Assembly (NCBI RefSeq): GCF_001304695.1
Contig: NZ_JFAQ01000061.1
Location: forward strand, 1 to 42,436
Direction: 5' to 3'
DNA: 42,436 nt
Source: Xanthomonas axonopodis
GTDB lineage: Bacteria > Pseudomonadota > Gammaproteobacteria > Xanthomonadales > Xanthomonadaceae
The notes beneath the pieces are model-generated. The model worked only from the letters and a program-made list of their open reading frames with translations. It did not search any database and had not been told where the DNA came from. Positions 6,519 through 25,844 of this stretch are shown here, in pieces (within the stretch, counting starts at the first letter, position 1; each line of letters opens with the position of its first letter). The translations under genes and the position numbers were made by a program.

Positions 6519-7469
6519 ATGCGCTCCTCGCTTTACGCTCCGTTGTCCCTTATCGCCTGCACCGCGCTGGCCCTGAGCGCCTGCAAGCCCGCCGACACGC
6601 AGCCAGCCCCGCAGGCGCAGGAAGCCGCCGCAACTGCCAATGCCGACGCCAGCGCTGCGGCCGGCAAGGCCGCGACGTCGTCCACCACCGCACCGGCCGG
6701 GGACGACAACCTCAATGCGGTGCTGTGGATGCAGCGCTCGGAGGAATACCGCGCCGTGGCCGAGCAGACCTACCGCGCCGCTGCCGACAAGCTCGATAAC
6801 GCGCTCAAGCAGCCCAATTGGGACGCGCTGGTGCCGGAAGAACACGGCAATGCCGCCACCGGCTTGAAGCCGGCGGTGGTGCTGGATGTGGACGAGACCG
6901 TGCTGGACAACTCGCCCTACCAGGCGCGCCTGCTGCGCGATGGCAAGGAATACGACGAGCTGAGCTGGGACCAGTGGGTGGCCGAGAAGAAGGCCAAGCC
7001 GATCCCCGGCGTGGTGGATTTCGCCAAGGCCGCCAACGCCCGCGGCATCACCCTGATCTACATTTCCAATCGTGCGGTGCACCTGAAGGACGCCACCTTG
7101 GCCAATCTGCGCAGCGTGGCCTTGCCGGTGGCCGACGACAGCGTCTTTCTCGGCCTGGGCACGGTGGTGCCCGGCTGCGAGCAGAACGGCAGCGAAAAGA
7201 ACTGCCGCCGCCAGTTGGCCGGACAGAAGTACCGCGTGCTGATGCAGTTCGGCGACCAGCTGGGCGACTTCGTGCAGGTCACCGCCAACACCGGCCAGGC
7301 GCGTGGCGCGTTGCTGCAGCAGTACCATGACTGGTTTGGTGAACGCTGGTGGATGCTGCCCCACCCCAGCTACAGCGGCTGGGAGCCGGCGCAGTTCAAT
7401 AACGATTACGCGCAACCCTGGCAAAAGCGCCACGATGCCAAGCGCGCTGCGCTGGAGGTGGCCCGATGA
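6519..7469 (+). CDS. HAD-type acid phosphatase lipoprotein (class C / e(P4) family)
   Basis: A 316-residue predicted lipoprotein phosphatase of the outer membrane or periplasm, probably releasing phosphate from nucleotides. Signal peptide with lipobox LSAC at residues 19-22, then an Ala/Thr/Pro-rich linker to about residue 62. HAD motif I is DVDETVLDN (D123, D125). YISNRAV acts as motif II, and QFGDQLGDF carries the motif-IV acidic pair. The conserved WDQWV and [13 protein letters not shown] segments fit class C acid phosphatases. Its stop overlaps the ATG of pyrF (ATGA), so the two are translationally coupled; nucleotide salvage and UMP synthesis are thus linked. An in-frame GTG lies 9 bases upstream as an alternative start. 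Confidence 0.88.
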
Positions 7470-8185
7470 GCCGCACGCCCTTGCCGCTGGCCGCGCATGA
7501 GCGGCTGATCTTCGCGCTGGATGTGCCCGGCCACGACGAAGCGATCGCCTGGGTGGACCGGCTCGGCGATTCGGTGTCGTTCTACAAGATCGGCATGGAG
7601 TTGCTGGCATCGGGCGAGTACTTCCACGTGCTCGACGCGCTGGCCAAGCGCGACAAGCGCGTGTTTGTGGACCTCAAGTTCTTCGACATTCCTGCCACCG
7701 TGGCCGGCACCATCCGCCGCCTGGCGCAGTGGCCGGTGAGCTATTGCACCGTGCACGGCTGGCACGCCGGCATGCTGCAGGCTGCCGCCGACGCCAACCA
7801 CGGCGATATGCGCCTGCTGGCGGTCACGGTGCTGACCTCGATGGGCCGCGCAGACCTGGCGGCAATGGGCATCGGCCGCGAACCGGTGGAGGTGGTGGTG
7901 GAGCGCGCGCTGGCTGCGCAGGCCGCCGGTATCGATGGCGTCATCGCCTCCGGCCAGGAAGCGGGCCCGATCCGCCGTGCCACCGGTCCGGCGTTTTCGA
8001 TCGTCTGCCCCGGCATCCGCCCCGGCGGTCCGGTCGGCGACGACCAGCAACGCACGGTGGGCGTGGCGCAAGCATTGAACGACGGGGCCGACGCGATTGT
8101 CGTTGGCCGCCCGATCCGCCTGGCGAGCGACCCTGCAGCGGCTGCCACCGCCATCCAGGCGGAGATCCGCGCAGCACTGGCTTAG
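7466..8185 (+). CDS. pyrF: orotidine 5'-phosphate decarboxylase
   Basis: Converts OMP to UMP, the last step of de novo pyrimidine synthesis, in the cytosol. The 239 residues are the normal length. Visible features: FALDVPG at 16-22 with the first aspartate, K41 in FYKIGMEL, the catalytic [11 protein letters not shown] at 69-79 (D69, K71, D74), [10 protein letters not shown], and the phosphate-gripper region [21 protein letters not shown]. The start codon overlaps the stop of the phosphatase gene by four bases. It is followed by a separate small-RNA-like unit with its own promoter. Confidence 0.96.
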
Positions 8186-8260
8186 TAATGCCGCTGAGCA
8201 GCCGCGAGCGCTGCTAGAAATTCAATTAAATCAACTTCTTAGACAACAATAATTAAAGCA

Positions 8261-8289
8261 TTGCTTTAACGTAAAAGTCTCGTTAACAT
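8261..8289 (+). promoter_or_regulatory. putative promoter of small RNA candidate
   Basis: TTGCTT (8261-8266) and TAACAT (8284-8289) are separated by exactly 17 bases, within an AT-rich stretch (about 8215-8290) that stands out against the GC-rich flanks. Transcription would start near 8297, at the first hairpin. Confidence 0.5.
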
Positions 8290-8296
8290 GCCGGCG

Positions 8297-8389
8297 TCCG
8301 ATGTCAGTCGGAAGCTGTGTCACTCATTGTCCACCGGGCTTGTCCCGGCTTTCGAAGGGATCGCGCCTTGTGCCCGATCCCTTTTTTTT
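8297..8389 (+). ncRNA. candidate small RNA with three hairpins
   Basis: Between pyrF and the halogenase gene lies a compact unit with no credible ORF: promoter-like boxes, then about 93 bases that fold into three simple hairpins. Hairpin 1 is TCCGA/TCGGA (8297-8301, 8308-8312). Hairpin 2 is CCGGG/CCCGG with loop CTTGT (8334-8338, 8344-8348). Hairpin 3 is the terminator (8355-8383). Loops 2 and 3 share the unpaired motif CTTGT, a possible seed for target pairing. Architecture is that of a bacterial trans-acting sRNA. I could not assign it to a named Xanthomonas sRNA. Confidence 0.6.
8355..8389 (+). terminator. strong rho-independent terminator
   Basis: Perfect 9-bp stem AAGGGATCG / CGATCCCTT, 11-base loop, followed by an unbroken run of eight T (8382-8389). 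It lies 170 bases after pyrF, behind the AT-rich promoter-like region, so it most likely ends the small RNA and may also end pyrF read-through. Confidence 0.85.
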
Positions 8390-8607: not shown

Positions 8608-10128
8608 CTACGGCAGCGCCGCTGCCTTGCAATAGCGGTCGATGAATTGCTGGTGGCTGGGCATCACATCCACGCAGTGCGAAATGGTCTGCGCCACGCT
8701 GGTCAGGAAGCCTTCGGCGTCGCGGTCGGGCACCTGGTCCACCAGCGGGTGATACCCCTGCGGCAGGATGCCCTGGCCCACCATCACCTGCACCCAGCTG
8801 ATCTCGGCAAACATTTCTTCGGCATTGCGATAGAAGCGCCCGCTGTCGCGGAAAAGATCCAAGGTGCTCTGTAGCTCCGAGGTGATCGGCATGTGGCGGC
8901 AATGCCGCCAGAACGCGCTGTCGTCGCGTCCGGTGGCGTGGTAGTGCAGCAGCAGAAAATCGCGGATGCGGTCGAACTCGAATGCCAGCCGGTCGTTGTA
9001 GCGCTGCACCAGCACCGGGCTGATGCCCTCGCGCGGGAACAGCTCCAGCAATTTGGAAATGCCGGACTGGATCAGATGGATGCTGGTCGATTCCAGTGGC
9101 TCCAGAAATCCGCTGGCCAGGCCCAGCGCGACGACATTGCGGTTCCAGCATTGCTTGCGCCGGCCGGTAGTGAAGCGCAGCGGGCGCGGGTCGGCCAGCG
9201 GCTTGCCGTCCAGATTGGCGAGCAGCGTGGCGGCGGCTTCGTCGTCGCTGATGTGCGCGCTGCAATACACGTAGCCGTTGCCGGTGCGGTGTTGCAGCGG
9301 AATGCGCCACTGCCAGCCGGCCGCGCGCGCGGTGGAGCGCGTGTACGGCGTGGGTGGGCCCACTTTTTCGCAGGGCACCGCCAGCGCGCGATCGCAGGGC
9401 AGCCAATGGGTGAAATCGTGATAGCCCGTGTGCAGCGCGTCTTCGATCAGCAGCCCACGGAAGCTGGAGCAATCGATGAACAGGTCGCCTTTGATCACCT
9501 GCCCGGAGGCCAGCTGCAACGATTGCACATGGCCGCTTTCCGGATGCAGCTGCACCTGCTCGACCAACCCTTCGATGCGGGTAACGCCGCGTTGCTCCGA
9601 ATAGAGACGTAGAAAATGCGCGTACTGCGTGGCATCGAAGTGGTAGGCGTAGGCGATGTTGGCCAGCGGCGAGTTGGCCGGCACGTCGCCGGCCGAGGTC
9701 ATGAATTTGCCGCGCGTGGCCGCCACGGTGTTGAGCGTGTACGCCCCCAGCGGCTGCGCTTTGCCGCGGGCGTGTTGTTTGATCCAGTATTGGTGGAACG
9801 GCAATAGCCCCAGCGGGTGCCCGATCTGGGTGCCGAAACCATGCATGTACTTACGGCCGGGGCGTTGCCAGTCGACGAACTCGATACCGAGTTTGAAGCT
9901 GCCCTGGGTCTGGCGCACGAACTCGGCCTCATCGATGCCGAGCAGGTTATTGAAGGCCTTGATGTGCGGCACGGTGGCTTCGCCCACACCGACGGTGCCA
10001 AGCTGTTCGGACTCGATCAGCTGCACCTTGAAGGTGGGCCCAAGCACGCGCGCAAACGCGGCGGCCGCCATCCAGCCGGCGGTGCTGCCGCCGACAATGA
10101 CGATGTTGCGAGGTGGAGCGGGAATCAT
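8608..10128 (-). CDS. tryptophan halogenase family flavoprotein
   Basis: A 506-residue cytosolic FAD-dependent halogenase-like protein. The nucleotide-binding GGSTAG is at residues 13-18, VGVGEATVPHIK follows, the lysine that holds hypohalous acid in PrnA-type enzymes is K79 in GSFKLGIEFVDW, and the halogenase signature WxWxIP is present as WQWRIP at 272-277. LGLASGFLEPLESTSIHL is the second flavin motif. Members of this family next to TonB-dependent receptors occur in Xanthomonas and Caulobacter; whether they halogenate free tryptophan is unknown. It is downstream of two Oar-like receptors and likely in their operon. ATG at 10128 is chosen since the dinucleotide fold starts there; an AGGA site lies 10 bases before. 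Confidence 0.88.
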   Translation of the reverse strand: MIPAPPRNIVIVGGSTAGWMAAAAFARVLGPTFKVQLIESEQLGTVGVGEATVPHIKAFNNLLGIDEAEFVRQTQGSFKLGIEFVDWQRPGRKYMHGFGTQIGHPLGLLPFHQYWIKQHARGKAQPLGAYTLNTVAATRGKFMTSAGDVPANSPLANIAYAYHFDATQYAHFLRLYSEQRGVTRIEGLVEQVQLHPESGHVQSLQLASGQVIKGDLFIDCSSFRGLLIEDALHTGYHDFTHWLPCDRALAVPCEKVGPPTPYTRSTARAAGWQWRIPLQHRTGNGYVYCSAHISDDEAAATLLANLDGKPLADPRPLRFTTGRRKQCWNRNVVALGLASGFLEPLESTSIHLIQSGISKLLELFPREGISPVLVQRYNDRLAFEFDRIRDFLLLHYHATGRDDSAFWRHCRHMPITSELQSTLDLFRDSGRFYRNAEEMFAEISWVQVMVGQGILPQGYHPLVDQVPDRDAEGFLTSVAQTISHCVDVMPSHQQFIDRYCKAAALP

Positions 10129-10166
10129 GCGGATGCATTCCTGAGCAAAGACAGCGGACGAATACG

Positions 10167-10192
10167 CGAACGGGGCCAATTGGCCCCGTTCG
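10167..10192. repeat. perfect 26-bp palindrome between receptor and halogenase genes
   Basis: Arms CGAACGGGGCCAA / TTGGCCCCGTTCG with no mismatch. In RNA it gives an 11-bp GC-rich hairpin with an AAUU loop. It lies 43 bases after the receptor stop and 39 bases before the halogenase start, with no T-run on either strand. Confidence 0.75.
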
Positions 10193-10234
10193 ACAGGCCA
10201 CATGCCCGTCCCGGCGCATGTGGCAAGGCACGCA

Positions 10235-13200
10235 TCAGAACTTGGCGCCGATCTCCAGCACGACACTGCGTGGCACGTAGTTGATCTCGCCACTGGTGTT
10301 GATGGCGATGTCCGGAGCGAACTGACCATTGCTGCCGAAGCCGTTGTAGGCGTACGCGCTGTAGTTCTTGAAGTTGAACGCGTTGAGCAGGTTTACACGT
10401 GCATTGAGCTTGAAGTCGCCGGCCACGGTGAACTCCTTTGTGGCCTGGAAGTCCACCGTGCGGTAGCCCCAGATATCGCCGCCCACCAGGAACTTGCCGC
10501 TGCCTGGCGGGGTGACGCCGACTTGCTGGCAGGTGGCGCCATCGGGTCGGTGAAGCCGAAGCAGGCGATCGTGTTGATCGACTCGGGCGTGGCCAACACC
10601 AGCTTCGCACCGAAGGTCACCCCCCACGGGCCGTCGATCGAGCCGGAAGCGACGAAGCGATGCGCGGCCACCGCGTCGGATTTGACGAACGGGTAGTCGT
10701 GGATCGTGGCCTTGTCGAAGCCGTAGGGCTCATCGATATTGCGATTCTGGCGCGCGCTGGTGTGGGTGTAGGACAAGGTCAGGCCCCAACCGGATTCCTT
10801 GGTGTAGGGCTTGTCGGCTGACAACAGCACCTGGCTGTTGCGCTGCTCCAGGCCGTTGCTGCCCAGGATGGTGTTCTGGTAGCCCGGCACCGGCTCGCCC
10901 CACGGCACGTTGCCGTTCTGGAAATAGGCGCCATCCGGATAGCGGTTGATCAGGCCCATCGCAAAGCCGTCGTAGCTCAGGATGCGCTGGAAGGTCACAT
11001 CGGTCAGCCAGTCGCCTATCTGGTTGGTGATGCCGATGCTGTACTGGTCGCTGTACGGCGTCTTGAGCTTGTTGTTGAACATGAAGAGCTCGGCGCTGCC
11101 GGACACACCGGGAATGGTGTTGAGCTGATCGATGCCGTTGAGATACCGCGGGTCGAACGCCACGCAGGTACGGTCGGCGCGATAGCACTGCTGGGTTGCC
11201 GGATTTTCGAAATACACCGCCACTGGCGACAACGCCGCCTTGCTGGTTTCCAGCGCCAACTGTTCGAACAGGTTGCGATCGTACGAGCGCGCGGCACCAC
11301 CATGCACAATGGCCGCTTCGTCGCCGAAGATGTCATACGAGAAGCCGAAGCGCGGCGCCCAGGCATCCTTGAAGTTCTTGCGGTTGTTGCCGGTGCTGAT
11401 GTAGTCGGCCACGTTGATGCCGCTGGGCAGCAGACGATTGGCCCACGGCTGGCCGGGATTTTCCGCGTCGTTGGCATAGAGCGCGTCGACGAAGGCCTGC
11501 GAGGTGACGAAGTTGGTGTAGGCCGGGGTGTCTTCGTAATCCCAGCGCACGCCGATGTTGATCATCAACTTGTCGGTAGCGGCCCAGTCGTCCTGCAGAT
11601 AGATGCCGTACTGCTTGGACGGCGAGACCACGGTGGCGCGCTGGCCTGGCGTGGTGTAGGGCGCGATGAAGTCAACCCGGTACGGCGTTGGGTCAATGCT
11701 GCCATTGCTGACGCGATAGCTAAACTGCGGATTCAACGCCGCCGAATCCTGCGAGGTGAGCTCGATGTCCTTGTAGTTCACACCCATCTTGATGGTGTGT
11801 TCGCCATGCCACTGGAAGCTGGTGAACGTCAGATCGTTCTGGATGAACCAGCCCTTCTGGCTCTTGCGCTGCGCGTTCTTGCCGCCAGCCGAACCGGTGG
11901 TGAGGAACGTGCGCTCATCGATATCGGTGGAACCGGAGCGCGGCTGGAAATAGGTGTAGACGATGCCGTTGCCCAGGGTGCGCGGGGTCGGGTTGTTCTC
12001 CGAATTTTCGGTGCCGACGATGACCTCGTTGAACCAGTTGTCGGCACTGTGCTGCCAACGCAGGTTGGTGCGCTTGTCCTTGTTGATCTTGTCGGTGGCT
12101 TGGGCAAGCGTGTTGGTACCGCCGACGTTGGCGGTCTGCGTCTCGTCGCGGTAGATCGTGCTCAGTTCGATGCGGTCGCGATCGGTGGGCTCGAAGTCGA
12201 TCTTGCCGAACAACAGGTCTTCTTCGAACGGCATGTTGGCCGGGCCGTACTGGCTGGACAGGTTGGCCGGCAGCTGGCTGACGAAGGCCGCCGCCTCGGA
12301 ACTGGGCTGCACGCTCTTGGGCGCCACGTTTTCCTTGCCTTCGTAGGCAACGAAGAAATGCATGCGGTGCTGGATGATGGGCCCGCCCAGCGCAAAACCG
12401 TATTCCTTGGTCTGCGAATCGATCTTGCCGTTGGCTTCTTCGTCGGGCCGCTTGTCGCGTAGATCCTGATCGGTGTAGCGATAGAACGCTTCGCCGTGGA
12501 ACTCGTTGGTGCCCGACTTGGTGGCTGCGGTAATCGCCGCGCCGCTGATCTGGCCGTATTCGGCCTTGTAGTTGGACGTGATCACCTTGTACTCGCCAAT
12601 GGCGAGCTGCGGGAACGGGTTGCCCTGCGTATCGCTTTGACCGGCAACGCCACCGCTGCGCACGTAGCTCTTCTGGCCCACGCCATCGATATAGAGATTG
12701 CCGGCGCTGGCGTTGGACGCACCGCCGCGCAGCTTGGTGTTGCCGTTGCCATCGACCTGAAACACCATGCCCGGCACGGTATCGGCAAACTCCAGGAAGT
12801 TGCGCGTGGCCTGCGGCAATTGCTGGATCTGGTGCGCGCTGATGGTGTTGCCCACCTCCGAGGTCTTGACGTCGCGGATCATCGGCGCGCTGACCGTCAC
12901 CGTATCCAGCGTGGTCGCATCGCCGACCGGCGCCGCAGTCGTCTCGGTACCCAGATCGACGATGGCGCTGGAGGCCACCGACAGGGTCACCGTGCGGCTG
13001 ATGCCGTTGGATTCGACCTTGTAGGTGTCCGGCTGCAGCCCGACGATGGTGTAGTTGCCGTTCGCATTGACCGGCGCACGTCGCACCGAGCCGGTGGCGA
13101 GATTGGTGACGACGACCTCGCTGCCGCTCTGCGCGGAAGCGACCTGGCCGCGCAACGTGGCGTTGCTGGACTGGGCCATGGCCGGTGTGGTGGCGAACAA

Positions 13201-13269
13201 CGAGGCGGCCAGGGCGCAGCACAACAGGCTACGCGCCGGCAGGGTGGAGACGGTGCGGTGATTCTTCAA
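10235..13269 (-). pseudogene. Oar-like TonB-dependent receptor, frameshifted near C-terminus
   Basis: Outer-membrane receptor for an unknown substrate. A signal peptide (LLCCALAASLFATTPAMAQ) is followed by a carboxypeptidase-regulatory-like beta domain (about residues 35-115), a plug domain (TSEVGNTISAHQIQQLPQ onward) and a beta barrel ending GAKF. The reading frame breaks at about 10544-10547: after ACFGFTDP it shifts to DGATCQQVGVTPPGSGKFL, which needs one extra base. With that base restored the protein would be 1011 residues, matching its tandem paralog (1013). About 100 C-terminal residues are lost as sequenced. The start is TTG where the paralog has ATG, behind the same GGGAGGGGGAA site. 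Upstream paralog is intact. Confidence 0.85.
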
Positions 13270-13276
13270 GACTTTC

Positions 13277-13289
13277 CCCCTCCCAGGGG
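13277..13289 (-). promoter_or_regulatory. hairpin covering the receptor ribosome-binding site
   Basis: On the minus strand CCCCT-GGG-AGGGG forms a 5-bp stem that includes the Shine-Dalgarno GGGAGGGGG eight bases before the TTG start. The same arrangement exists before the paralog at 16641-16653. Confidence 0.45.
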
Positions 13290-13498
13290 TAAAGCGCGAC
13301 GCAGTGCAGTGACTGGCGCGTTGGGTTGGTGCTTTGGTGTGGAACACAGGGACAACAGGCAACAATAGCCGCAATGGCTGCAAGAACAACAAGGGTCTGC
13401 GGTGACGGTGCTTGCTCCTTCAGGCACGGGTCGAGACGGGCGAGGCAATGGCGGCGCGTGGCCGATACGGCGCATCGGCAAGCACCGGGCAATGCAAA

Positions 13499-25099: not shown

Positions 25100-25327
25100 T
25101 TAGGGGGGCTGGATTTGCCTCAGTACCTCTTCGATTTGTTCTGCTAGTAACTCGAAGCAAAATTCCAAAGCGTCCGGTGTCACCGTTACCTTGTGATCGC
25201 TAGACGCGTCTGCAGAGTGCTTAGCGCACACCAGCGACGCTAAAAAACGCAAATGATCGCGTGTTTGCAGTAACCGAAGCTGCGCATCTTCCGGCAGCAG
25301 GTAATACCCGAATAATGACTACTCCAT
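25100..25327 (-). pseudogene. XAC0095-family small protein with amber codon 3
   Basis: Read with codon 3 as a sense codon, the frame gives a 75-residue protein: ME-(stop)-SLFGYYLLPEDAQLRLL, RDHLRFLASL, and a helical tail ending EEVLRQIQPP. YLLPEDAQLRLxxxRDHLRFL is the signature of the Xanthomonas XAC0095 family (function unknown). The ATG at 25325-25327 has a strong GGAGAG site at 6 bases, but codon 3 is TAG, where CAG would be one change away. No alternative start lies between the TAG and the conserved core, so the gene is probably dead unless the amber codon is read. Confidence 0.7.
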
Positions 25328-25348
25328 GCTCGACTCTCCGGACAGGCT

Positions 25349-25369
25349 CCCGCCGCACGATGCGGCGGG
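25349..25369 (-). promoter_or_regulatory. leader hairpin before the XAC0095-type gene
   Basis: Perfect 9-bp GC stem CCCGCCGCA / TGCGGCGGG with CGA loop, ending about 10 bases before the ribosome site of the minus-strand gene. No T-run on the minus strand. It would sit in the 5' leader. Confidence 0.4.
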
Positions 25370-25380
25370 ATGCCGGGAGG

Positions 25381-25539
25381 TTAGCAACCGCAAACAGACG
25401 GCGGGCTTATTCCCCTTGCGGGTGTTGTATTCGCCGCCCTCCCGGCGCGGAGACGCCGAGCATGCGCCCGAACATCAGGCACAAAAAACCACCGCTCGAC
25501 GGGGGTGGCACCGCTGCTTGCGGAGTTGCTACGCTCCAT
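25381..25539 (-). CDS. small ORF of unknown status (52 aa)
   Basis: Encodes 52 residues starting MERSNSASSGATPVERWFF and ending SPPSVCGC. I recall similar AANTTPARG-containing predicted proteins scattered in Xanthomonas annotations, which may mean a dispersed repeat rather than a gene. No good ribosome site precedes the ATG. On the minus strand its DNA also contains CCACC-loop-GGTGG followed by six T (25483-25508), which looks like a weak terminator inside the frame. Confidence 0.3.
   Translation of the reverse strand: MERSNSASSGATPVERWFFVPDVRAHARRLRAGRAANTTPARGISPPSVCGC
25483..25508 (-). terminator. possible terminator inside the small ORF
   Basis: 5-bp stem CCACC/GGTGG with 10-base loop and a T6 run on the minus strand. 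Its position inside a small frame and upstream of the XAC0095-type gene would fit an attenuator; weak stem, so uncertain. Confidence 0.35.
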
Positions 25540-25550
25540 GGTGGAGTGTG

Positions 25551-25619
25551 CTACCGACGCATGTGGGCAGTCAAGCTGCAGGCCTGGACTCTTCGTGCTC
25601 TATTGGTTAGCAATGCCAT
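25551..25619 (-). other. 22-codon mini-ORF in the leader region
   Basis: Encodes MALLTNRARRVQACSLTAHM plus two arginines. It is followed 11 bases later by the 52-aa ORF. No proper ribosome site. Recorded because it may form a leader-peptide-like arrangement; it may equally be noise. The surrounding 25540-25844 stretch is lower in GC and holds nothing else I can name. Confidence 0.2.
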
Positions 25620-25844
25620 GCCTCAAGAGTGTAAGTCTCGATGCATGGATTCCGGATCACCGCGAAGTGGAGGAAAATTAAATACCTCAATTAATGCGTA
25701 GATGAATATCGGTAGCGCAGAAAACTACGGCGATAAATCTTCCAGCTGGGATTTGACTTCATACCCGCAACTAGGAAGGCATCATATAAGCCGAGGCGCT
25801 AAGCTTGTTCACTGGCCCAGCAAGCGTCGCGGAGCAAACCAACC

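What the first reader, a model, noticed from the sequence alone, without database searches (positions are those of the whole stretch)
8261..8389. Unannotated small RNA with repeated CTTGT loops
Seen: boxes TTGCTT-N17-TAACAT in an AT-rich island, then three hairpins in 93 bases, the last a 9-bp terminator with T8. No ORF fits. Loops 2 and 3 both expose CTTGT, so the RNA may offer repeated seeds. The promoter lies outside pyrF, so it is an independent unit.
Basis: partly seen in the sequence, partly recalled or inferred. Interest (0 to 1): 0.72.

Follow-up and report, generated by a model that had tools for sequence, protein, structure and literature searches.

The report
Known small regulatory RNA sX14
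The interval is the gene of an already described Hfq-dependent small RNA of Xanthomonas (sX14, also called Xoo3); comparison with relatives moves its likely mRNA-pairing part from the two hairpin loops to the strand between the first two hairpins, extends the RNA to the wider bacterial family, and shows a fixed binding-site motif for the DNA-bending protein IHF in front of its promoter.

Summary
In detail: a sigma70-type promoter (TTGCTT-N17-TAACAT), three hairpins and a terminator with T8. It is not unannotated: it is Rfam RF02233, sX14/Xoo3 (113.3 bits, cut-off 80), published with Northern blot, 5' RACE (93 nt), loss in an hfq mutant and a deletion proteome (PMC3039613, PMC3771888). Both loops spell CTTGT in 22 of 35 same-genus loci, 2 of 3 of one sister genus and 0 of 66 others, whereas GCCAC in the linker between hairpins 1 and 2 is kept in 94 of 104. 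New here: Rfam's cut-off finds the RNA in 18 of 297 family genomes, a model built here in 199 of 297. The stems covary. The promoter carries an IHF consensus at a fixed place (at least 8 of 9 positions in 81 of 83 loci and in 20 of 20 validation loci). Best explanation: an Hfq-dependent, trans-acting sRNA that pairs through the linker, from an IHF-tuned promoter; seed and IHF control are inferred. No target was found: seed complements are not enriched at start codons and no shared site was found between genera.

The parts
8229..8241 (+). IHF-consensus motif AATCAACTTCTTA (WATCAANNNNTTR, 9 of 9), centred about 61 nt upstream of the RNA start
   Evidence: at least 8 of 9 positions in 81 of 83 loci and in 20 of 20 validation loci; consensus as quoted in PMC5963220 (passage)
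8253..8269 (.). dyad TTAAAGCA-T-TGCTTTAA overlapping the -35 box; possible operator (tentative)
   Evidence: the most symmetric centre of the promoter region (5.04 of 8 pairs against 3.82 for the next centre), but pairwise covariation is weak
8261..8266 (+). -35 box TTGCTT
8284..8289 (+). -10 box TAACAT, 17 nt after the -35 box
8296..8389 (+). sX14/Xoo3 small RNA (RF02233 match 8296-8387; 93 nt by published RACE in X. oryzae)
   Evidence: (PMC3039613)
8297..8312 (+). hairpin 1 (UCCGAU/GUCGGA)
8313..8332 (+). linker between hairpins 1 and 2; conserved G(C)CAC 8319-8323 (GUCAC in the window) and GUCC 8329-8332; inferred pairing seed
   Evidence: in the window's own lowest-energy fold the linker forms a weak 5-pair hairpin with UCACU in its loop
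8334..8348 (+). hairpin 2, loop CUUGU 8339-8343 (loop not conserved)
8349..8353 (+). U-rich spacer before the terminator, candidate Hfq contact together with the U tail (inferred)
   Evidence: Hfq dependence published for the same RNA in relatives
8354..8389 (+). intrinsic terminator hairpin, loop CUUGU 8367-8371 not conserved, T8 tail 8382-8389
7466..8185 (+). pyrF (orotidine 5'-phosphate decarboxylase), upstream neighbour, not part of the sRNA unit

Best explanation
A free-standing gene for the trans-acting, Hfq-dependent small RNA sX14. RNA polymerase starts at 8296 from a TTGCTT-N17-TAACAT promoter and stops at the 3' hairpin-T8. Two short, covarying hairpins flank a linker whose GCCAC core is among the most conserved unpaired bases; with Hfq on the U-rich spacer and tail it most likely pairs with start regions of several mRNAs and changes their translation or decay. 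An IHF site about 61 nt upstream of the start, at constant distance from the -35 box, probably bends the promoter DNA and ties expression to growth phase. Shown here or published: gene, structure, conservation, promoter motif and, in relatives, transcript, Hfq dependence, growth-phase change and deletion phenotype. Inferred: the linker as seed, IHF binding, and direct targets.
For: RF02233 at 113.3 bits; own genome and 34 of 34 others of the genus; published 93-nt transcript, Hfq dependence, early-growth peak and 26 changed proteins on deletion. R1, built without any sequence of the window's genus code (g1), finds the window as its only hit in the whole genome (E 4.9e-8). Covariation: 95.8% of cells paired against 83.0% in shuffles, 13 of 17 pairs with changes on both sides, score 0.407 against 0.183 shuffled and at most 0.116 slid. 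GCCAC in 94 of 104 loci; mean unpaired probability of the 7 bases from its G 0.52-0.96 by genus, 67 sequences scored and 4 not. Promoter with a 17-nt spacer anchored in 82 of 84 loci; IHF motif; 20 of 20 loci outside the training set carry both, although the model does not cover the promoter.
Against: No target evidence: linker-complement matches of at least 7 nt at 531 starts are 34 against 38.7 +- 10.2 for shuffled linkers; seed-complement screens in G014 and G320 and in G160, G172 and G277 gave no orthologous gene with a start-proximal site in common. The linker 3' of GCCAC differs between genera (mostly AAC against UC), the window itself has GUCAC, and GUCC is about as conserved as GCCAC in the 11 genera. 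The loci were found with models that score these bases, so their conservation is partly ascertained. In the genus, loop 2 is more accessible than the linker core. IHF occupancy is not tested; shuffles of the same A/T-rich regions reach 9 of 9 in 0.17% and 8 of 9 in 3.1%, and the reverse strand reached 8 of 9 in 11 of 83 loci. Many loci are near-identical, so counts are not independent events.
Confidence: 0.7

Rival explanations
1. Loop-seed model of the first reader: loops 2 and 3 expose CUUGU twice and kiss ACAAG sites, like the C-rich loops of sX13.
For: Both loops read CUUGU in the window and in 22 of 35 same-genus loci; loop 2 is accessible (0.92 in the genus); sX13 is a published precedent for loop-driven pairing.
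Against: 0 of 66 loci outside the genus and g63 keep it, and loops vary within the genus (CGUGU, CUGGU, CAUGU, CCUGU); ACAAG not clearly enriched at starts.
Confidence: 0.08
2. The RNA acts mainly by binding a protein (Hfq titration or an Rsm/Csr-type sponge) rather than by base pairing.
For: Short, structured RNA whose level depends on Hfq; no target signal found.
Against: No loop of the window carries GGA, the RsmA/CsrA signature (recalled; loops read); a fixed unpaired GCCAC is more typical of a pairing seed (inference); deletion changed 26 identified proteins in both directions.
Confidence: 0.14
3. A two-state RNA: the 5' arm of hairpin 1 pairs with the 3' arm of hairpin 2 and encloses the linker, so that GCCACAA sits near an apical loop.
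For: This nested fold is the lowest-energy structure in several relatives (L038, L041, L048, L069, L085).
Against: Covariation does not support it: 84.7% paired against 85.0% shuffled, while the local hairpins give 96.4% against 88.3%; the same-genus folds printed are local.
Confidence: 0.06

Closest known systems
sX14 / sRNA-Xoo3 (Rfam RF02233)
   Same: Full-length match above the cut-off, same size, same kind of place (intergenic, flanking genes in different orientations).
   Different: Nothing in kind. Rfam's cut-off of 80 bits is passed only within the window's genus code among 297 family genomes; the model built here matches in 31 further genera.
sX13 (Xanthomonas)
   Same: Short structured sRNA with three stem-loops in the same bacterial family.
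   Different: sX13 lies downstream of polA, acts without Hfq and through C-rich loops (passages); sX14 lies downstream of pyrF or the acid phosphatase gene, its level needs Hfq, and its loops are not conserved.
Hfq-dependent trans-acting sRNAs with an exposed seed (general class, recalled)
   Same: Conserved unpaired stretch, U-rich 3' end, intrinsic terminator, Hfq dependence (published for the relatives).
   Different: Seed between two hairpins; targets unknown; in the evalue scan of 13 relatives' loci no other Rfam family matched.

Membership tests
sX14 (RF02233) | covariance-model score at or above the gathering score of 80 bits | tested here: met
   113.3 bits, positions 1-92 of 92
sX14 (RF02233) | three hairpins, the last an intrinsic terminator | tested here: met
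sX14 (RF02233) | expressed as an RNA of about 93 nt that depends on Hfq | not testable with these tools
   published for X. oryzae (size, Hfq) and X. campestris pv. vesicatoria (Hfq), not for this genome
sX13 | C-rich (CCCC) apical loops | tested here: not met
   loops GUCA, CUUGU, CUUGU; loop definition from PMC3771888
sX13 | located downstream of polA | tested here: not met
   downstream of pyrF; polA location from PMC3771888
RsmA/CsrA-sequestering sRNA | GGA motifs in hairpin loops | tested here: not met
   no loop holds GGA in the window; definition recalled; GGA motifs are mentioned in PMC7694677 (passages)

The most novel reading that the evidence does not exclude
sX14 is a core, mostly single-copy, IHF-gated Hfq sRNA of the whole family Lysobacteraceae/Xanthomonadaceae that travels with its own promoter module (IHF box, dyad over the -35 box, fixed 17-nt spacer). 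Its ancestral seed GCCACAAC was re-spelled to GCCACUC in the genus Xanthomonas, so the regulon was rewired there while promoter and scaffold stayed fixed.
Probability: 0.35. Interest if true: 0.5.

Novelty: already known. Interest (0 to 1): 0.3.

Why it matters
The window's feature is a described sRNA, so its existence is not news. What the comparison adds is usable: a corrected candidate seed, a family-wide distribution that the curated threshold hides (18 against 199 of 297 genomes), and a promoter motif that names a testable regulator, IHF. That lets target capture be done in harmless relatives.

Tried and rejected
Loop seeds (ACAAG) and linker seeds at 531 predicted start windows in 800 kb of one relative (G014): no clear enrichment. 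Gene prediction there was home-made (535 genes, 75-80% coverage), so start errors dilute the test. Start-proximal GTGGCACA in G014 (43 sites) and G320 (44 sites): 14 usable genes, no orthologous pair (one 30%-identity, 84-aa hit at E 3e-4, not taken as orthologous). All G320 sites and all G014 sites but three (2971534, and two beside the sRNA itself at 5017120 and 5017268) were fetched. GTTGTGGC before ATG in G160, G172 and G277: 40, 33 and 34 sites, of which 30 each were laid as loci; 12 usable genes, no pair across genomes.

Nested alternative fold: rejected on covariation. RNAalifold on the plain MAFFT alignment A1 gave no pairs, because the hairpins were out of register; model-fitted alignments were used instead, which lean towards their structure. 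Sigma54 reading of TTGC: rejected, no GG at the needed distance (by eye; consensus recalled). Dyad as operator: kept only as tentative. L068, L082 and L088 were dropped as non-homologous by eye; L036 and L037 are duplicates of L032 and L035. Weak hits in another family of the order (L146, L148) lie behind pyrF but lack GCCAC and this promoter: left open.

Full report
What is there. Rfam names it: RF02233, sX14/Xoo3, 8296-8387, 113.3 bits against a cut-off of 80, E 9.9e-21. The own genome and 34 of 34 other genomes of the genus have one match each; of the 26 genomes outside the genus in that search, 0 had one. The pattern scanner reported no promoter in the region and did not list this terminator.

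What is published. In X. oryzae pv. oryzae, sRNA-Xoo3 was cloned, mapped by 5' RACE (93 nt; about 80 nt on the Northern blot), peaked in early growth and was strongly reduced without hfq; its deletion lowered 18 and raised 8 identified proteins, redox enzymes among the lowered (PMC3039613: passages, sections 6 and 10). In X. campestris pv. vesicatoria, sX14 was strongly reduced in an hfq mutant and restored by hfq (PMC3771888, passages). PMC3039613 reports no similar sequence in two Xylella strains and no related sRNA in other bacteria. A whole-word search for sX14 in the held library gave 15 papers; of these, judged from listing titles, only PMC3771888 concerns this RNA. sRNA-Xoo3 appears in one paper. 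The paper that PMC3771888 cites for sX14 was not seen.

The RNA reaches across the family. The Rfam model passes its cut-off in 18 of 297 family genomes, all of the window's genus code, but gives weaker matches in many more (109 of 297 at E <= 0.1; the same search also gave one sub-cut-off match in 14 control genomes). I fetched 52 of the non-genus matches, mostly the stronger ones. Three were dropped as non-homologous (L068, L082, L088). Of the other 49, 39 have pyrF upstream (36 at 133-291 nt, 3 at 1187 nt), 8 of the remaining 10 have the acid phosphatase gene that precedes pyrF in the window, and 2 have the rep/UvrD helicase gene that lies further upstream in the window. In the genus itself 32 of 35 loci have pyrF at 153-189 nt; L022 shows part of it 1211 nt away, and L004 and L021 show none in 3,092 nt. 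A model built from 20 sequences, none of the window's genus code (R1), finds the window as its only hit in the whole own genome, E 4.9e-8. A second model from 64 sequences (R2) finds 199 of 297 family genomes, in 32 of 54 genera, at E <= 1e-4, two of the 199 with two matches; in a class-wide set it finds 3 of 274, all three in the window's family and one of them the own genome. Training sequences match by construction, the E-values are rough, and the stricter filters can miss weak matches. As an independent check I fetched 20 loci, chosen from the stronger R2 hits (E 3e-16 to 5e-10) of genomes not used in training, 18 of them from genera not in training. 20 of 20 have the promoter, at least 8 of 9 IHF positions (13 of 20 have 9 of 9) at the same distance from the -35 box, and the acid phosphatase gene upstream (in L298 with pyrF in between), although none of this is in the model. 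Named carriers from an exact pattern (27 stretches) include Stenotrophomonas maltophilia, S. panacihumi, Pseudoxanthomonas spp. and Xanthomonas albilineans; three hits in unrelated MAGs (Acidobacteria, Limnochordia, Lachnospiraceae) do not show the RNA, by eye. X. albilineans carries the g26 type, so the tool's genus code g1 is narrower than the name Xanthomonas.

Structure and seed. On the model-fitted alignment A3, 95.8% of cells pair (83.0% shuffled), 13 of 17 pairs show changes on both sides, and the covariation score is 0.407 (0.183 shuffled; at most 0.116 when slid) (A4: 94.9%, 11 of 17). A3 contains three weak rows (L068, L035:662-725, L016:186-255) that were left out only of the conservation count. 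In several relatives the lowest-energy fold is a nested one that pairs hairpin-1 arms with hairpin-2 arms, or another alternative; covariation does not support the nested one (84.7% against 85.0% shuffled), while it supports the local hairpins (96.4% against 88.3%). The most conserved unpaired bases of 11 genera are G.CAC (8319-8323) and GUCC (8329-8332), about equally; GUCC is broken in several validation loci (L283-L286, L300-L302, by eye). GCCAC is kept in 94 of 104 loci and GCCACAA in 59 of 104, never in the window's genus (0 of 35), where the spelling is mostly GCCACUC; the window has GUCAC. Both loops spell CTTGT in 24 of 104 loci: 22 of 35 in the genus, 2 of 3 in g63, 0 of 66 elsewhere. 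So the loops behave like structural loops and the linker like a seed, with two cautions: the loci were found by models that score these bases, and in the genus loop 2 is predicted to be more open (0.92) than the linker core (0.72).

Promoter. Anchored at the -35 box, 82 of 84 loci align with a 17-nt spacer to TA...T; TTGC.T is present in all of these but L032 (TTAATT). L034 has a 16-nt spacer and L089 no such promoter at the expected place. About 30 nt further upstream all 11 genera carry a WATCAANNNNTTR-like motif: 9 of 9 positions in 64 of 83 loci, 8 in 17, 7 in 2; the offset from the -35 box is -32 or -31 in 81 of 83. Upstream windows of 531 genes of a relative gave 0 with 9 of 9 and 2 with 8 of 9; shuffles of the same A/T-rich regions gave 9 of 9 in 0.17% and 8 of 9 in 3.1%; the reverse strand of the same regions reached 8 of 9 in 11 of 83. 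The combined pattern (IHF half, -35, -10) occurs once each in G000, G014, G320 and G115, at sX14, and not in G172, which has the RNA but not the exact pattern; the reversed control gave 0. The consensus is the E. coli IHF site as quoted in PMC5963220 (passage). In the window the site is 8229-8241, all nine positions matching. Because the motif is also present in loci without pyrF, it belongs to the sRNA and not to pyrF. A dyad centred on the first T of the -35 box is visible (perfect 8-1-8 in the window, 8253-8269), but the evidence that it is an operator is weak.

Function. The published deletion and Hfq data, the fixed linker and the U-rich 3' part fit a trans-acting, Hfq-dependent pairing sRNA. 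I found no target: searches are negative, with small and partly incomplete samples. The published early-growth peak and an IHF site together suggest growth-phase control, but the direction (activation or repression by IHF) cannot be told from sequence. A search for papers joining integration host factor, Xanthomonas, sRNA and Hfq listed five, judged from the listing only; none is on this RNA by title.

Verdict. Known sRNA, observation correct, 'unannotated' wrong, loop-seed idea not supported; the useful additions are the linker seed, the family-wide range and the IHF site. On checking this report against the calls, the confidence of the main explanation was lowered from 0.72 to 0.70 and the protein-binding rival raised from 0.12 to 0.14, because of the accessibility numbers.

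Noticed in passing
window 25364-25446 (-): A second Rfam sRNA in the window: sRNA-Xcc1 (RF02221), 78.6 bits, cut-off 53; it lies antisense to a mechanical ORF 25261-25701.
   Followed up: no
window 8608-13392 (-): Tryptophan halogenase gene (PF04820) ends convergently about 220 nt from the sRNA terminator; a long ORF behind it (10393-13392) looks like a TonB-dependent receptor (by eye).
   Followed up: partly
L146 1952-2050 and L148 1845-1926 (family f7 of the order): Behind pyrF (49% identity) lies a hairpin-terminator stretch sharing CTCTCCGGC..GCCGGACTT with the hairpin-2 region of relatives, but without GCCAC or the sX14 promoter: distant remnant or coincidence.
   Followed up: partly
L057, L058, L066 (g48): In these three loci pyrF lies 1187 nt upstream of the RNA instead of 133-291 nt, as if a gene had been inserted between them.
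   Followed up: no
promoter spacer of many same-genus loci, e.g. L001, L006: CTTTAACGTTAAAG, a perfect palindrome running from the -35 box into the spacer, stands in many same-genus promoters; not seen in other genera by eye, and imperfect in the window (CTTTAACGTAAAAG).
   Followed up: no
G014 sites 545729, 550870, 2965274, 2971534: Four similar GTGGCACACT..GGGCATG / GGGGAGCATG stretches, apparently a repeated gene start in that relative.
   Followed up: no
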